Origin: Candidatus Sulfotelmatobacter sp.
GTDB lineage: Bacteria > Acidobacteriota > Terriglobia > Terriglobales > Acidobacteriaceae
Assembly: GCA_025928375.1 (NCBI GenBank)
Contig: JAICJP010000008.1
Location: 1-33,412, forward strand
Direction: 5' to 3'
DNA length: 33,412 nucleotides
Part shown: piece by piece, positions 2,746 through 27,429 of the stretch
Position numbering within the stretch: the stretch's first letter is position 1
Layout: every line of letters starts with the position of its first letter
Made by a program: the position numbers and the translations under genes
The notes under the pieces: model-generated
The model's input: only the letters and a program-made list of their open reading frames with translations
What the model was told of the DNA's origin: nothing
The model's database searches: none

Positions 2746-3151
2746 ATGATGTCAGACGCAAAGCCACAAACCGGACGAGAACACGAAGTGGGGACTTTAG
2801 CCGCGCCGCTCCTGACTCTGGACCTCAAGCGCGAGATCGAGAAGCTACGATCCGAAGGACGCTGGCAGTCTGGGCACACGGCAAAGACGCTCGTCAAGTA
2901 TTCCGATTTCCGGCTCGTGTTAATCGTCATGAAAACTGGCGGGCGATTGGACAAACATCGAACCGAGGGACGAATTTCGGTTCAAACTCTCGACGGACGA
3001 ATTCGGTTCAGTACTGCCGAGCGGTCAGTTAGAGCTAGCAGCAGGGCAAATGCTGACACTAGAACACGATATTCCTCACGATGTGGAAGGCATCGTTGAC
3101 AGCGCTCTTCTACTGACCATTGCGTGGCCCGATCCAGCTTCCCTCCGGTAG
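2746..3151 (+). pseudogene. Cupin-domain protein with a frameshift near 3010
   Basis: Frame 1 gives LTLDLKREIEKLRSEGRWQSGHTAKTLVKYSDFRLVLIVMKTGGRLDKHRTEGRISVQTLDGRIRF. From 3014 frame 2 continues LPSGQLELAAGQMLTLEHDIPHDVEGIVDSALLLTIAWPDPASLR* (stop 3149-3151). Confidence 0.75.
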
Positions 3152-3161
3152 GAACTGAAAA

Positions 3162-3410
3162 ATGTCCAAAACGTTCAAGCGTGGCGATCATGTCGAATGG
3201 AACTCCGAAGCAGGAAGGGTGCGCGGAACGATCATCAAGCGAGTTGTATCGGACACTCGCTTCAAAGGCTACGTGCACCACGCTTCAAAGGACGAACCGC
3301 AATACCTCATCAAGAGCAATAAGACTGATCACATTGCGATTCATAAGGGGAAGGCGTTAAAACGAATTGCCACTCCGACTCACCGAAGGCGGGGTACGAG
3401 GAGCCGCTAG
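3162..3410 (+). CDS. DUF2945 / hypervirulence-associated Tudor-like domain protein
   Basis: MSKTFKRGDHVEWNSEAGRVRGTIIKRVVSDTRFKGYVHHASKDEPQYLIKSNKTDHIAIHKGKALKRI matches the DUF2945 pattern (GD.V.W....G...G.I...........Y.I.S..T...A.HKG..L). Confidence 0.85.
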   Translation: MSKTFKRGDHVEWNSEAGRVRGTIIKRVVSDTRFKGYVHHASKDEPQYLIKSNKTDHIAIHKGKALKRIATPTHRRRGTRSR

Positions 3411-9311: not shown

Positions 9312-11415
9312 ATGGATCACATCACGCACCATGAGCACGAGCCCGCCGTGCCTCATAGCGGCCGTGGCATTTCGGGAGCACATGCAAGTCACGACCCTCA
9401 CGCGGGACACACCGTCGCCATGTTTCGCGACAAGTTTTGGCTGAGTTTCGCTCTGACTGTTCCTGTCGTCTTCTGGTCGTCCGACGTTCAACACTGGCTT
9501 GGATACAGAGCACCTTCTTTTCCTGGCTCGAAGTTTATCCCTGCCATTCTCGGAACCGTCGTCTTTGTCTATGGCGGGATGGTCTTCATCCGCGGGGCGT
9601 GGGGCGAACTTTCCGATCACAAGCCCGGCATGATGACTCTCATCAGCCTGGCGATCATAGTTGCCTTTGGTACGTCGCTCGCCGCAACACTCGGTCTCTT
9701 CGAGGTCGAAGTCTGGCGGGAACTCGCCTCTCTGATTACGATCATGGTCCTCGGCCATTGGCTTGAAATGCGAGCCATTTCCCAGGCTCGTGGTGCCCTC
9801 AACGCACTTGCCGCCCTGCTGCCGGACACGGCTGAACGTATAAGCGGAACCGAGAGTCAGAGCGCTCCAATTTCTGAGTTGAAAGTGGACGACATTGTCC
9901 TTGTACGGCCCGGAACGCGTGTTCCGGTGGATGGCATAGTCATTGAGGGTGCTGCCGATGTTGACGAGTCGATGATTACCGGCGAGTCCCGGACCGTTGC
10001 GAAAAGTGCAGGTGCCAAGGTCATCGCGGGAACGGTAGCCAGCGGCGGGAGTCTTCGAGTCCGCGTCACGGCCGTCGGCGAGGAGACGGCTCTGTCCGGC
10101 ATCGTGCGGCTCGTAGTGACTGCCCAGGCTTCTGGATCTCGCACGCAAGCTCTCGCCGACCGTGCCGCCGCAATCCTTTTCTACGTGGCTGTCGCGTCTG
10201 GCGCGATTACTTTGGCTTTGTGGTGGCTTTCAGGAGACAAAGAACATGCCCTGATCAGGACGGCAACCGTCCTTATCCGCCTGCCCGCACGCCTTGGGAC
10301 TGGCAATTCCACTCGTGATTGCAATCTCGACATCGCTCGGCGCCCAGAATGGACTCCTCATCAAGGACAGGCTCGCACTCGAACGTGCGCGCAATTTGGA
10401 CCTGGTGATTTTCGATAAGACCGGGACGCTCACGCGTGGAGCCCCCGCATTCTCGGGAGTGGTGGCGGCGTCTGGTGTCAATGAGAAAGACTTACTCGCC
10501 TTTGCTGCTGCCGTCGAAGCCAACTCCGAACACCCGCTCGCTGAAGCAGTCGTAGCCGAGGCCAAACGCCGAAACTTGCCCACGCTGCAGGCTGCCGACT
10601 TCGAGGCGCTGCCGGGTCGAGGCGCACAGGCGCGCGTGAACGGCCACAGCGTCATTGTCGGCGGACCGCGTTTGTTGACCGAGGGCAAGGTGACAGTGTC
10701 CCTCGAAGTTGAAAATGTGACGAGCCAGTGGGCATCCGAGGGAAAAACCGTTCTCTATATAGTGGCCGAAGCAGGACTGATAGGCGCTTTCGCCCTTGAG
10801 GATGAGATTCGGCCCGAATCCCATGAAGCCGTCAGGGAACTCCATGAGCTCGGTATTCGAGTCGCAATGATCACGGGAGACTCCAAGACGGTGGCCGGCT
10901 CAGTCGGCCAGCGGATCGGTATAGATGAAGTTGCCGCAGAGGTTCTTCCCGCTGACAAAGCATCGGCGGTCAAGCGCTTTCAGGCGGGCGGCACGAGAGT
11001 CGCAATAGTTGGTGACGGCGTAAACGACGCACCAGCGCTGGCAACTGCGGATGTTGGAATTGCGATTGGCGCGGGAACCGATGTGGCGATCGAATCGGCA
11101 GGCATTGTGCTTGTGCGCAGCGACCCGCGAGATGTTGTGGGAGCGATCAAACTATCGCGTGCTGCCTACCGAAAAATGATTCAGAATCTGGTTTGGGCTA
11201 CTGCTTATAACCTCGTCGCGATCCCTGTAGCAGGAGGCCTGCTCGTCCGATGGGGGTTCGATCTACCGATGAGTGTGGGTGCAGTCGCAATGAGCCTCTC
11301 CACCATCATCGTGGCTCTGAATGCTCAGTTGCTTCGCCGACTGAAGCTGCAGCCTACAGCCCCGTTATTAGGCAAAAACCTCTCATCATCAGCAAAAATG
11401 GGGAGTTTCGTTTAA
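9312..11415 (+). pseudogene. copB: P1B-type heavy-metal ATPase, CopB-like (His-rich N-terminus, CPH motif), frameshift near 10277
   Basis: MDHITHHEHEPAVPHSGRGISGAHASHDPHAGH N-terminus, DESMITGES, then after a +1 shift at CC 10277-10278 IACPHALGLAIPLVIAISTSLGAQNGLLIKDRLALERARNLDLVIFDKTGTLT and GDGVNDAPALATADVGIAIG. Confidence 0.85.
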
Positions 11416-11552
11416 TGCGGTCTCCGTGCCCCTATTTTGAGATGCTGCTGGAACGCCTCAAAACTCAAAGTCAATTGAGAACTGCGATTGCTGCGGAATG
11501 CCCGCTTTGTTCGGGTGCCCAAAGTTGGAAGCGGAAATCCTCCCGAGCCGGT

Positions 11553-12142
11553 TTAGCGCAGCGCTGCTTTCACAGCCGGCATGGCGAGCCTGCGAAAGAG
11601 TGCGTTGACTTCGTCCACGGAAAGCGAGAGTTTCCCAGAGGCCTACAACATTGCCAGACTAAAGAAGCCGCCGGTAACGAATTGGAAAACCGCTTCGGCA
11701 GGGACCGAGCCGTCGTCGCGTCGTCCCACCGTATCCTTGAGATCGTCGCGCACGAGATCCACCACGATTTCTGCAATAATTGCTGGACCAGTGCACCGCT
11801 ACGTCGTACCCACCATGGCTCGAAACACCTTTCTATACTCTGCGATGTGCGCAAACATCTCGTGACTGAACGCGAATAACTGTTCGTCCGACCTCGTCGC
11901 CTGCATTTGCGCCTGGCGTTGGAGCTCTTTCAGCGCGGCACGCAGCCCGTCGAAACCACTGACTAGGAAGTCTTCCTTGTTGTCGAAGTGGGCGTACAAT
12001 GTGGCGCGGCCAACGTTCGCGCGATCAATGATGTCCTGCACGTGAGTGCTTCAAAGCCCCTCTCCTCAATCAAGGACACCAAGGCCGTGCGGAGGAGTTG
12101 TTCTGTCCATCGTACACGGCGGTCATCCTTTGTTGTTCTCAT
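11553..12142 (-). pseudogene. TetR-family regulator remnant with several frameshifts and an in-frame TAG
   Basis: MRTTKDDRRVRWTEQLLRTALVSLIEERGFEALT / QDIIDRANVGRATLYAHFDNKEDFLVSGFDGLRAAL... / RSGALVQQLLQK / VVDLVRDDLKD...LAML*ASGKLSLSVDEVNALFRRLAMPAVKAALR* spread over frames. Confidence 0.75.
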
Positions 12143-12182: not shown

Positions 12183-12665
12183 TTAGCGTTCTGCCTTTTC
12201 GTCGGGCGGCAAGTGGCGGAACATGAAAGACGAGAAGACACGGTCAAAGCTCGCCACGGCGTATGGGAGGTCGTTGCCGCGTCCAGCATGAACCGGCTCC
12301 TGTATGTTTGTTGGTTCAAGGGGCTTGGGCCCTTGCTGTTTCAGTTGCGCCTTTAGTTCGAAATTCCATTTCCAGATTGCGAAGACTGGCGGATAAATAA
12401 TGAGTTCCATCAGAAACGAGGTAATGATCCCGCCGATCATGGGGGTAGCGATGCGCTTCATCACGTCACCACCAGTACCGACAGACCACATGATTGGCAG
12501 CAGACCGAACAGCATGCAGGCCACCGTCATCACCTTAGGGCGGAGACGTTTGACGGCTCCCACCACGATGGCTTCTCTCAGATCATCCCAACTGTTCATC
12601 CGTCCCTTGCTGATGGCCTCGTGGTAGGCAAGATCCAGGTGTAAGAGGATGAAGACGGATCGCAG
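12183..12665 (-). pseudogene. C-terminal fragment of an RND heavy-metal efflux pump (CusA/CzcA family), 5' truncated next to the att-like junction
   Basis: DLAYHEAISKGRMNSWDDLREAIVVGAVKRLRPKVMTVACMLFGLLPIMWSVGTGGDVMKRIATPMIGGIITSFLMELIIYPPVFAIWKW is the terminal TM region of CusA-like pumps; the bulk of the gene (over 900 aa expected) is absent. Confidence 0.85.
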
Positions 12666-12680: not shown

Positions 12681-12703
12681 ATTGTGGCTGTGATTGTGGC
12701 TGT
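12681..12703 (+). repeat. Direct repeat pair TGTGGCTGT (12683-12691, 12695-12703; 12-bp period), left of the tRNA half
   Basis: Read directly: attgtggctgtgattgtggctgt. Confidence 0.85.
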
Positions 12704-12825
12704 ACGCTGGTAAATGTCGACAGCATTTCAAGCACTTACGAATGGTTCTCTGTGCGCGCAAGACTTGTGTAAGCTAATGGTTAATCGTGAGTTAATGTAC
12801 GATCTGAACTTGTGGATTGGCGTGT

Positions 12826-12870
12826 CTCTTAATCAGTAGGTTGAAGGTTCGATTCCTTCCGCGCTCACCA
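12826..12870 (+). other. 3' half of a tRNA-Lys(CTT) gene including CCA; candidate att core
   Basis: CTCTTAA anticodon loop, TCAGT, variable AGGTT, T-arm GAAGG-TTCGATT-CCTTC, acceptor 3' strand CGCGCTC, A, CCA. No matching 5' half (GAGCGCG... or ACTGA) immediately upstream. Confidence 0.8.
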
Positions 12871-12903
12871 TATTTTGAACCACTTCGGGAGACCGCTGTC
12901 CAC

Positions 12904-12948
12904 AAAATCAGTTGCTGTGGCTGTTTTTGTGGCTGTGCAACTGATTTT
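12904..12948. repeat. 12-bp perfect inverted repeat AAAATCAGTTGC / GCAACTGATTTT enclosing a second TGTGGCTGT pair (12916-12924, 12928-12936)
   Basis: Read directly: aaaatcagttgc tgtggctgt ttt tgtggctgt gcaactgatttt. Confidence 0.9.
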
Positions 12949-13110
12949 TACATCAGGTATTTCTCCTCGATCCGTGGCTCGCGACCCTCTTCTTGGACCG
13001 CAGCGCCTTTGAGTTTCTGTTGATTGCGACGATCGATGACGGCTTTGATCGGCGCCGTTTCCGGGTGCAGATACCCCAGCGTTGTGGCCCGTCATCATGG
13101 AAAGCAGAGT
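12948..13110 (-). pseudogene. C-terminal remnant of a tyrosine recombinase/integrase
   Basis: Minus-strand frame: RATTLGYLHPETAPIKAVIDRRNQQKLKGAAVQEEGREPRIEEKYLM*; TTLxYLHP is the segment containing the catalytic Tyr in tyrosine recombinases. A possible preceding MMTGH lies in a different frame. Confidence 0.6.
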
Positions 13111-13560
13111 TGACGAGGCGCACATCGACGAGGAAATAAGCCGGGCGCTCGAGTCGTTGACGCCGAACGCCATCCTGGCAATGGCGGGAGATTAGTACAG
13201 CGGCGTTCCTTGAGCCGTTGTAGATGCACTGTACTCCTTCGCCAACAACATCCGCGTCTGCTTAGAGCTGAGCGCCACCCCCGGCACCGTTTCTCTTTGA
13301 GTGGCAATCTTACCAGAGATCAAACACCTGGTTTGCGGCCGCTTGATAGTTTGATCACTGCGTGAGTGGCTGCGCTGGAAGTCGCTGGAGATGCGAAATC
13401 CCAGCCCGAACGGCTGATCAGCGCGGTACCTCTCGTTTCCGGCAATACGGCCCGGACCTTCGACTGTCGCTCATGTTGGTTACAGGGTAAGGGAAGACAA
13501 GAAGGCAAACCATCTGGCCTGATATCCTGAAAGTTGAAGACCAATTTCGAGAGCGTGGAA

Positions 13561-16526: not shown

Positions 16527-17071
16527 AGCGTCCGAAAAGCGTTTTGCGGTTTGCGATGTTAGTCGGTGAATATGCGCATAGTCAATAAGATTTTACGTTG
16601 TGTTTCCTTACGTTTCAGATCGGATAAACGTTTTTGCAATGCTTCTTTTGCACTGGTCGAAGGCACGCATGACCGATGGAAGGAATCTGGCATAGAAATT
16701 TGAGGTCACATGACGACTCACTACACAGGATTTCTTCCACGTGAGCGGCATCACTGACAAAGCGCGAGCCCGAAAGGCGGCGATTGTCCCGAACCAACAA
16801 TCTGATCCGCTCATTGGGGCGGGTCGCCCCCTTTTCAAAGCATGGTGAGAAGTAGGGCCCCGAGCCCGGCCAAGAGGCGGATAGGGATGGTCGTCAGCAT
16901 CTCAGGGCATCATAACAACAGAATGGTCCCAACAAGTGCGTTGCTGGCCAACCGTGGCTCATGCGTTTGTCATTCAAAGGCGAGTCAAATTTGTTTTGAC
17001 GTGCAGCAGAGAGCCGGCAATCATGGCTGTGGATTCCCGCCGCGAGCCGAGTGACAGGGGGAGCGCGTTGT

Positions 17072-17869
17072 TCACGACCCTGGCGTATGGGCGTTTTTGT
17101 GCTCGTACATTCTGCGATCCGCCCCGTCGAGCATCTCATCGAGGGTGTCTCCATCGTGCCACTCGGCCAAACCGATGCTCAAGCTGATCTGGAAGCTGTC
17201 GAGGTGTCCTGCATTGTTCCAATTGTGGAGCTCGTTCTTAATCCGTTCAATCACATTTTGAGCGCCAATCGCAGTCGTATCCGCTAGCAACACCAAGAAC
17301 TCGTCTCCTCCGTAACGTATCGCCGCATCTGAGCCCCTGATCGAAGCTCGCAGGATTGCAGCAATCTCGGCTAAGACGTAATCACCGGTCAGGTGCCCAA
17401 AGCGGGTGTTGACCTGCTTAAAATTATCGGCGTCGACCATCAGAAACGTGAGGGGGGCGTGCCTTCGCCGGGCATGGCTGATGAGCCGGCCTGCGATGTC
17501 ATCTAATGAGCGACGGTTGTATATCTCGGTAAGCGGATCGGTGAACGACTGCTGCTCAATAGCCTGCGCTTGTAAGGTGCTGGAGATCAACTGCTCGCGC
17601 AAACGACGAACCTCGAAGCGTTTGGTTACGAGGTAAGTATTGAGGAGTGCGAGCAAGACTGACAGCGCGATGACGAGCGGACGGGATACCGTAAACTCCA
17701 CATGGACAGTGTCATCCTGAAAGGCGACGCGGAAAAGGACAGCGAGCAGAACGGCGCTCACCAACACCCCTGTGAGGGAAACGATCGCCCAAAGTTCCCA
17801 ATCGCGCTTCTCCAGGGAGGAGAGTTGTTTGCTTACACGAGCGACCGTACTTTCAGGATGCTTCAACAT
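17072..17869 (-). CDS. Membrane-anchored diguanylate cyclase (GGDEF domain)
   Basis: Two TM segments, then DPLTEIYNRRSLDD...VDADNFKQVNTRFGHLTGDYVLAEIA...SDAAIRYGGDEFLVLL...SIGLAEW. Confidence 0.93.
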   Translation of the reverse strand: MLKHPESTVARVSKQLSSLEKRDWELWAIVSLTGVLVSAVLLAVLFRVAFQDDTVHVEFTVSRPLVIALSVLLALLNTYLVTKRFEVRRLREQLISSTLQAQAIEQQSFTDPLTEIYNRRSLDDIAGRLISHARRRHAPLTFLMVDADNFKQVNTRFGHLTGDYVLAEIAAILRASIRGSDAAIRYGGDEFLVLLADTTAIGAQNVIERIKNELHNWNNAGHLDSFQISLSIGLAEWHDGDTLDEMLDGADRRMYEHKNAHTPGS

Positions 17870-23212: not shown

Positions 23213-24421
23213 ATGGTAGAACAGATCACCTCGAGCGAGAGTTCCGTTGCGCCGGTCTCACCCCCGGCTGTCGCTGTACCGCCGAAGCGCTCGCCCGCTG
23301 GTGCTCCTGTTTCGACTGCGGCACTCTTGCGAGCAATGCTGGCAAGCGCCCCGAAAATAAGCGATCTTTTCTTTTCTCCTGGGAAACCGCCGACGGTGGA
23401 GATCAATGGCCATCTTTCGTCAGTCGGGTCACGAGCCCTCGCGCCAGACCACACACGGCAGATTGCTACCGAACTGATTGGGAACAACAAGCACGCGCTC
23501 GGCAATCTTCGCGAGCACGGCTCATGTGATGTTTCCTACAGCTTGGCGGAAACATCTCGATTTCGAGTGAACATTTTCATGCAGCGCGGCAGTTGCGTTA
23601 TTGTCATGCGAGTGATTCCCAGTAAGGTTCCTGATCTCGCAGAGCTGAATCTGCCTGCCGAGCTGGAAAACATTGTCGCTCTGCGTAATGGCATTGTTCT
23701 AGTCACCGGACCGACAGGATCTGGAAAATCTTCCACCCTGGCAGCCATCATCGACCGCATCAACAAGCAACACGCATATCACATTTTGACGATTGAGGAT
23801 CCCATAGAGTTTCTTCATCCCCATCAAAAGTGTCTGGTTCACCAACGTGAGCTGCACAGCGACACCACCAGCTTTGCGTCCGCACTGCGAGCGGCACTAC
23901 GTCAGGCACCCAAGGTGATCTTGGTGGGCGAAATGCGCGATCGGGAAACCATCGAGATCGCGCTGGAGGCGGCAGAGACCGGACACTTGGTGATGTCAAC
24001 CCTGCACACCATTGATGCCTCGAAGACGGTGGAACGGATCGCGGGCGTGTTTCCCTTAGCCGAGCAGCACATAATTCGCAATCGTCTGGCAAAGAGTTTC
24101 CGCTACATCATTTCGCAGCGGCTGCTCCCTCTAAAGAGTGGAGCCGGACGAGTAGCGGCGCTCGAGATTCTGAAATCGACACTGCGCACACGGGAATACG
24201 TGGAAAAGGGTGAAGACGAAGGTAAAACCCTGCTCGATGCTATGCGCGTCGGCACGACTGAGGGAATGCAACACTTCGATGGCGAAATTGAAAAGCTGAT
24301 CCGCGCTGGAATGATTGACTTCGAAACGGGGATGGCCTATGCGACAAATGCAGGAAACCTACGCTTGGAGTTGGCAGACTTTGCAGAATCCACGCGGGCA
24401 GATGCAACGCCCGGCGCGTGA
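23213..24421 (+). CDS. pilT: PilT/PilU-like type IV pilus retraction ATPase
   Basis: Walker A GPTGSGKSS, HILTIEDPIEFLH, HQRELHSDTTSFASALRAALRQAPKVILVGEMRDRETIEIALEAAETGHLVMSTLHT. Confidence 0.93.
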   Translation: MVEQITSSESSVAPVSPPAVAVPPKRSPAGAPVSTAALLRAMLASAPKISDLFFSPGKPPTVEINGHLSSVGSRALAPDHTRQIATELIGNNKHALGNLREHGSCDVSYSLAETSRFRVNIFMQRGSCVIVMRVIPSKVPDLAELNLPAELENIVALRNGIVLVTGPTGSGKSSTLAAIIDRINKQHAYHILTIEDPIEFLHPHQKCLVHQRELHSDTTSFASALRAALRQAPKVILVGEMRDRETIEIALEAAETGHLVMSTLHTIDASKTVERIAGVFPLAEQHIIRNRLAKSFRYIISQRLLPLKSGAGRVAALEILKSTLRTREYVEKGEDEGKTLLDAMRVGTTEGMQHFDGEIEKLIRAGMIDFETGMAYATNAGNLRLELADFAESTRADATPGA

Positions 24422-24501
24422 TGGGGCCGGCCGGCATCGTCTGATGCTATGCCGTCCGCTCCAATAATCTCCAACCTCTGTCCGGCGGACTGGGAACACT
24501 G

Positions 24502-24906
24502 ATGCTGGTCAAAATATTCCAACCTAGGTCGATTTACGCCTGTTGTACCCTCGGGATTCTCATTGTCATCGCCGTGGCACTTAGGTTAAATCGCCCCCAT
24601 GTGCCTCGGGAAATTCGCAGGCCCAGAGCAAATTACCAGAGCCCGTCAAAGATTTTGGGTCCTCGCCCCCCTTTGCTCAATGTCGAGTCGATTACGCCGT
24701 ATGGTCACATTGTAGAAATCCAGGCCGAAACTGATCCGGGAACAACCGTTATGGTCAATGGCGAAAAGGCGGCGGTGATCTTCGCCGGGTCGCGGATCAG
24801 ACATTTTGTGGGACCCTTACCCGACGGAATCACCGTTGTAACGATCACGGCGCAAAACGATGAGGGCGGCGTGATCACCAAAAGATTGGCAGTAGTATTA
24901 CCGTAA
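24502..24906 (+). CDS. Membrane-anchored protein with an Ig-like / glucodextranase-B-like domain
   Basis: N-terminal TM CTLGILIVIAVALRL; VESITPYGHIVEIQAETDPGTTVMVNGEKAAVIFAGSRIRHFVGPLPDGITVVTITAQNDEGGVITKRLAVVLP. Confidence 0.6.
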   Translation: MLVKIFQPRSIYACCTLGILIVIAVALRLNRPHVPREIRRPRANYQSPSKILGPRPPLLNVESITPYGHIVEIQAETDPGTTVMVNGEKAAVIFAGSRIRHFVGPLPDGITVVTITAQNDEGGVITKRLAVVLP

Positions 24907-25119
24907 GCGGCGGCCGCTACTATTTCCGCCTGGAAGATCAAACTCCTGAGATCCCCCCTGGCGATGCAATCCAGATGCCGAACTGTGTGGCGCGAGTATT
25001 GCGCGCGTGGGCGAAAATGGCAGCGAATTTGGGTTATGGTACGTCAAGGAAAAAGTGCAATCTCGATGCAATTCTCGTTTCCGCTTGAACGAGGCTCGTT
25101 TGAGTAGTATTCATTTCAT

Positions 25120-27202: not shown

Positions 27203-27429
27203 AAGAACGAGTTCCACAATTGGAACAATGCAGGACACCTCGAGAGCTTCCGGATCAGCTTGAGCATCGGTTTGGCCGAGTGGCACGACGGAGACACCCT
27301 CGATGAGATGCTCGAGGGGGCGGATCGCAGAATGTACGAGCACAAGAACGCCCATACTCCAGGGTCGTGAACGACGCGCTCCCCCTGCCACGCGGCTCGG
27401 GGCGGGAATCCACAGCCATGATTGCCGGC
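27203..27429 (+). repeat. 227-bp inverted duplicate of 17013-17239 (GGDEF gene 3' end plus downstream DNA)
   Basis: Gap-free alignment to the reverse complement of 17013-17239 with about 11 mismatches counted by eye; encodes KNEFHNWNNAGHLESFRISLSIGLAEWHDGDTLDEMLEGADRRMYEHKNAHTPGS*. Confidence 0.93.

What the first reader, a model, noticed from the sequence alone, without database searches (positions are those of the whole stretch)
12681..13110. Att-like junction at a half tRNA-Lys(CTT), with paired arm-type repeats and an integrase tail
Only the 3' half of a tRNA-Lys is present (12826-12870), as expected for an att duplicate left by a tRNA-targeting integrative element. TGTGGCTGT occurs as two pairs, each with exact 12-bp period, one pair on each side of the core (12683/12695 and 12916/12928). 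This resembles arm-type integrase binding sites on both sides, i.e. an attP-like arrangement, which can arise between two tandem or accreted elements. A tyrosine recombinase C-terminus ends at 12948, within 80 bp of the core.
Basis: partly seen in the sequence, partly recalled or inferred. Interest (0 to 1): 0.78.

Follow-up and report, generated by a model that had tools for sequence, protein, structure and literature searches.

The report
Fossil attachment site of mobile element
The sequence holds the decayed attachment site of a mobile DNA element that normally inserts into a lysine tRNA gene; the thing itself is ordinary, but it carries paired binding-site repeats that turn out to mark both ends of a whole family of such elements in this bacterial lineage.

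Summary
Window 12683-12950 is a full attP-type site: P arm pair (TGTGGCTGT x2, 12-bp period), a 21-bp conserved block, the 3' part of tRNA-Lys(CTT), P' arm pair (TGTGGCTGT x2), then the last ~45 codons of a tyrosine integrase. Relatives show that both arm pairs are real. A complete 26.9-kb element in G454 has tRNA-Lys + P' pair + intact integrase at one end and P pair + half tRNA-Lys at the other. Six further genomes have a P-to-CCA segment alignable to window 12683-12870. In all 17 related integrases whose 3' end faces a tRNA 3' end (various tRNAs), a 12-bp-period pair lies between. The 'tandem or accreted elements' reading is possible but not shown. The contig is 99.9% identical to a contig of another genus (G092), so it is probably misbinned in G000. 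In G092 the intact tRNA-Lys lies in ordinary chromosome on another contig with no integrase beside it, and the outer ends of an array are missing. The rest of the element is gone on both sides, leaving a ~430-bp fossil. New member of a known kind; the conserved arm grammar is the useful part.

The parts
12316..12665 (-). 3' stub of an RND efflux pump gene, cut off ~15 bp from the P arm
   Evidence: PF00873 positions 949-1019 only; no truncated partner elsewhere in G092. End at ~12665 read by eye from the translation
12683..12703 (+). P (distal) arm: two TGTGGCTGT, 12-bp period; left limit of the conserved element end
   Evidence: homologous segments of other genomes align from this pair onward, upstream sequences unrelated
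12746..12766 (+). 21-bp block TTCTCTGTGCGCGCAAGACTT, invariant in 7 of 7 P regions; candidate directionality-factor or host-factor site (inferred)
12823..12870 (+). core: 3' part of tRNA-Lys(CTT) from the anticodon loop to CCA; identical to the intact gene from 12826
12904..12948 (.). 12-bp inverted repeat (AAAATCAGTTGC/GCAACTGATTTT) around the P' arms, next to the integrase stop; also present at C111
12916..12936 (+). P' (integrase-proximal) arm: two TGTGGCTGT, 12-bp period
12948..13091 (-). open remnant of the tyrosine integrase C-terminus (homology reaches ~13103 with two in-frame stops)

Best explanation
A relic attP-type site of an integrative element that uses tRNA-Lys(CTT). In the living element (shown by comparison, not by experiment) the integrase gene sits 3' of the tRNA with its stop toward it. 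The integrase would bind the paired arm sites on P' (by the integrase) and P (far end) through its N-terminal domain and recombine the anticodon-loop-to-CCA core; excision joins P and P' around the core (inferred from known tyrosine integrases). Window 12683-12950 has exactly this joined order. It therefore came from an excised circle captured away from the tRNA, or from the junction of two same-type elements in tandem; the integrase and all other element genes were then lost, leaving ~430 bp. The site is almost certainly not self-mobile now.
For: Complete G454 element: tRNA-Lys, P' pair TGTGGCTGTTTTTGTGGCTGT, 368-aa integrase, then after ~26.9 kb P pair TGTGGCTGTAGTTGTGGCTGT and half tRNA-Lys. 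Six genomes besides the window share P-arm-to-CCA at 74-80%. Window P' side + integrase tail 77% to C111 attL. All 17 attL-arranged related integrases have the 12-bp pair; 18 of 19 regions score at least 7/9 versus 2.0 expected, maximum 7 in 1000 shuffles. Four other element types (Glu, Arg, Leu, Lys-TTT) have matching pairs at both ends with a 42-nt half-tRNA.
Against: No excision circle, reads or integrase binding data. Cause (tandem versus capture) unresolved: no second attL or attR of this type in G092, and tRNA-Lys there is not adjacent. The integrase fragment is too short for Pfam.
Confidence: 0.85

Rival explanations
1. Junction of two elements integrated in tandem (accretion): left = far end of one, right = integrase end of another. 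(A sub-case of the best explanation: how the attP-type site came about.)
For: Accretion at tRNA-Lys occurs in this family: G100:C334 has P arm (TGTGCC type) - half tRNA-Lys - P' arm (TGTGCCC type) - integrase tail, and G100:C565 has P - half tRNA - another integrase. Known elsewhere, including tRNA-Lys in S. agalactiae (PMC5704250).
Against: Arms on the two sides are of the same type here; no tRNA or outer att ends nearby or elsewhere in G092; tRNA-Lys on C119 is flanked by chromosome.
Confidence: 0.42
2. An excised circular form was captured at a non-tRNA site by another recombination route, then decayed around its attP. (The other sub-case.)
For: Same-type arms, continuous P-core-P'-int order, no cognate tRNA next to it, same core allele (GAAGG/CTTCC) as the G092 tRNA-Lys.
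Against: No remaining element genes to left or right to show the circle; the insertion edges are not recognisable.
Confidence: 0.42
3. Assembly or binning artefact.
For: The contig matches another genus' genome end to end at 99.89%, so it is probably misbinned in G000; two further G000 contigs do the same.
Against: Misbinning does not create the junction: both assemblies carry it, and they differ at ~0.1% of positions, so they are not copies of one assembly.
Confidence: 0.04
4. The left TGTGGCTGT pair is chance.
For: The single 9-mer is frequent.
Against: Homologous P ends in other genomes begin at the same pair; distance to core 140-150 bp as in most other element types.
Confidence: 0.01

Closest known systems
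attI / accretion junctions of ICEs, IMEs and CIMEs (ICESt1-type; S. agalactiae tRNA-Lys island; PMC5704250)
   Same: P side of one att and P' side of another joined at a tRNA 3' end, decayed partner
   Different: no tRNA gene or outer att ends adjacent; both arms of one type; only ~430 bp left
attP with arm-type sites of tRNA-targeting tyrosine integrases (lambda-like heterobivalent; ICEMlSymR7A, PMC11963761)
   Same: arm-type repeats on both sides of a core that is a tRNA 3' end
   Different: here two arm sites per side with fixed 12-bp period (11 on some P sides); ICEMlSymR7A has five sites of consensus TGKTGGTATC
SGI1 tandem and secondary-site integration (PMC2297512; PMC5704250)
   Same: tandem copies and off-site insertion are known for such elements
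   Different: SGI1 uses thdF, not a tRNA, and is intact

Membership tests
attP-type site of a tRNA-Lys(CTT) tyrosine-integrase element | core identical to the 3' end of an intact tRNA gene | tested here: met
attP-type site of a tRNA-Lys(CTT) tyrosine-integrase element | integrase-proximal arm homologous to a real attL | tested here: met
   C111 77%, G454 76-85%
attP-type site of a tRNA-Lys(CTT) tyrosine-integrase element | distal arm homologous to a real attR | tested here: met
   G454 and five more genomes
attP-type site of a tRNA-Lys(CTT) tyrosine-integrase element | functional integrase adjacent | tested here: not met
   only the C-terminal tail remains: a relic, not a working site
attP-type site of a tRNA-Lys(CTT) tyrosine-integrase element | integrase binds arms and recombines the core | not testable with these tools
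   needs binding and recombination assays
Tandem accretion (attI) | intact tRNA plus outer attL and attR flanking the junction | tested here: not met
   not found in G092 or G000 for this site; assemblies are fragmented
Tandem accretion (attI) | two distinct element arms around one core | tested here: inconclusive
   arms of the same type on both sides

The most novel reading that the evidence does not exclude
The paired arm sites with fixed 12-bp period define a distinct att architecture of one integrase group in this bacterial family: arm sequence changes with the integrase (TGTGGCTGT, TGTGACG, TGTGCCGTA, TGTGGGGAC, TGTGCCCA, GTACGCCC) while the spacing stays, so arm and N-terminal domain co-evolve and element ends can be predicted from sequence alone.
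Probability: 0.5. Interest if true: 0.5.

Novelty: new member of a known kind. Interest (0 to 1): 0.38.

Why it matters
The relic itself is ordinary. It exposed a conserved end signature (12-bp arm pair, half tRNA, a 21-bp block in one subtype) that delimited one complete 26.9-kb element of the same type and four elements of other types in unannotated genomes. It gives a natural series for studying how an integrase's arm-binding domain tracks its arm sites. It also warns that a contig's bin may not be its genome.

Tried and rejected
A second half-tRNA or P copy to close a tandem in G092: none. Linking C2 to C119 by contig-end overlap: none. Synteny of C2 and C119 with G027:C11: for C119 only the tRNA and a stretch ~9 kb upstream of it, for C2 nothing convincing. 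Finding the other part of the RND gene: none truncated in G092. The search for related loci in genome contigs: one irrelevant Delftia hit. G056, G038, G093, G070, G034, G050 and G096: no full-length second half-tRNA in the DNA fetched; G040 has a half copy 62 kb away without a visible arm pair. A conserved inverted motif (TTTTCAATCACTTA after CCA, TAAGTnnTTGATT before the core) was seen by eye and only partly checked. The organism could not be named with the tools; the gene content suggests Acidobacteriota, from memory only.

Full report
Observation. All coordinates hold. The window is the whole contig G000:C365. The half tRNA (12826-12870 exact, 12823-12870 with one mismatch) matches an intact tRNA-Lys(CTT) on G000:C111:5512-5587. 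The 9-mer alone is at chance level genome-wide (36 copies), but 12-bp-spaced pairs (up to 2 mismatches) occur at only three places: the two in the window and one next to the C111 tRNA.

What stands at the intact tRNA. On C111 the tRNA is followed by the same AAAATCAGTTGC-arm-pair-CAACTGATTTT module and a complete 390-aa tyrosine recombinase (PF00589), then an HTH_17 protein, an AAA ATPase, a transglycosylase, and VirB9/CagX- and TrbI/VirB10-like proteins. Window 12823-13085 aligns to it at 77%, so the window's tail is a diverged, decayed relative of that integrase (51% over residues 340-390, two stops).

The contig is probably misbinned. The window matches G092:C2:36068-2654 end to end at 99.89%; G092 is a 99%-complete genome of another genus of the same family. 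G000:C457 (16.2 kb, 99.92%) and part of C258 (2.9 kb, 100%) do the same, and composition leans to G092. C111 does not match G092:C119 beyond the tRNA. So the relevant intact tRNA-Lys is G092:C119:~41.9 kb. It has no such integrase beside it. A tRNA synthetase (class I, W/Y type) and AsmA-type genes follow; an unrelated integrase with a TrwC relaxase lies ~22 kb away. The window site therefore does not sit at its cognate tRNA in the available assembly.

Arms are real. Of the 20 nearest integrase loci (L007-L026) 17 have the integrase 3' end facing a tRNA 3' end (Lys-CTT, Lys-TTT, Thr, Met, Glu, Arg, Gln, Ser, Leu). In all 17 a direct-repeat pair of 12-bp period lies between. Over 19 regions shift 12 is the best or tied best in 16 and scores at least 7/9 in 18, against 2.0 expected and a maximum of 7 in 1000 Markov resamplings. 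Of the two tRNA loci in the other orientation, L026 lacks the pair, and in L018 the pair faces a second integrase found in the same contig.

Both ends. For elements at Glu, Arg, Leu and Lys-TTT tRNAs the distal 42-nt half tRNA was found 4.5-20 kb away, with a pair of the same arm type and orientation upstream of it, ~140-180 bp from the core (11-bp period at Glu). For the TGTGGCTGT type a complete element lies in G454:C8. It runs from tRNA-Lys and P' pair with a 368-aa integrase to a P pair and half tRNA-Lys ~26.9 kb on, with Fic, RepB-primase, c-di-GMP and TonB-receptor genes inside. Seven P regions (window, G105, G102, G600, G059, G454, G621) align from the arm pair to CCA with unrelated sequence outside (G621 keeps only the second repeat intact). 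They share an invariant 21-bp block (window 12746-12766), whose 3' 15 bp occur in nothing else held when searched.

Interpretation. The window thus has P-core-P'-int in one piece: the order of an excised attP, or of the joint between two same-type elements. Which of the two is unresolved. G100 shows that mixed-arm joints between different elements occur in this genus, and such accretion is well described (PMC5704250). But here the outer ends and the tRNA are missing, and the flanks (RND stub 15 bp to the left; unrelated genes to the right) show that nothing else recognisable of the element remains. Recombination function is inferred from the known chemistry of tyrosine integrases; nothing was tested at the bench.

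Novelty. A relic att site is a known kind. I found no paper on this arm grammar in the open library, which does not prove it is undescribed.

Noticed in passing
window 1-33412: Whole contig is 99.89% identical to G092:C2 of another genus; G000:C457 and C258 also match G092 near-perfectly, so the G000 bin probably holds foreign contigs.
   Followed up: yes
window 17013-17239 and 27203-27429: A 227-bp segment repeated in inverted orientation at 95% identity, 10 kb apart; nature unknown.
   Followed up: no
window 13359-13435: About 79 bp that recur at 87% on G092:C39; possible dispersed repeat right of the att relic.
   Followed up: no
window 23213-24421: PilT-family pilus ATPase; the stretch 23950-24911 recurs at 92% on G092:C114.
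   Followed up: no
L142 (G100:C334) ~2850-3300: Mixed-type joint: TGTGCC P arms (11-bp period), half tRNA-Lys, TGTGCCC P' arms, integrase tail; an independent accretion junction.
   Followed up: partly
L040 (G027:C11) 9443-11661: 2.1-kb island between tRNA-Lys and a half tRNA with TTTGGGTT P arms and no integrase; the half copy has a different T-stem allele from the intact gene.
   Followed up: partly
L176/L177 (G454:C8 41793-68742): Complete 26.9-kb element of this type with Fic, RepB-primase, c-di-GMP and TonB-receptor genes.
   Followed up: partly
L057/L058 (G092:C119 13172-19748): Separate element with TrwC relaxase and a 496-aa integrase ~22 kb from tRNA-Lys.
   Followed up: no
L143 (G105:C209) and L145 (G102:C194): A HigA-like antitoxin gene (recognised by eye) ends ~25 bp outside the P arm in two genomes, so it may be common cargo at the far end.
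   Followed up: no
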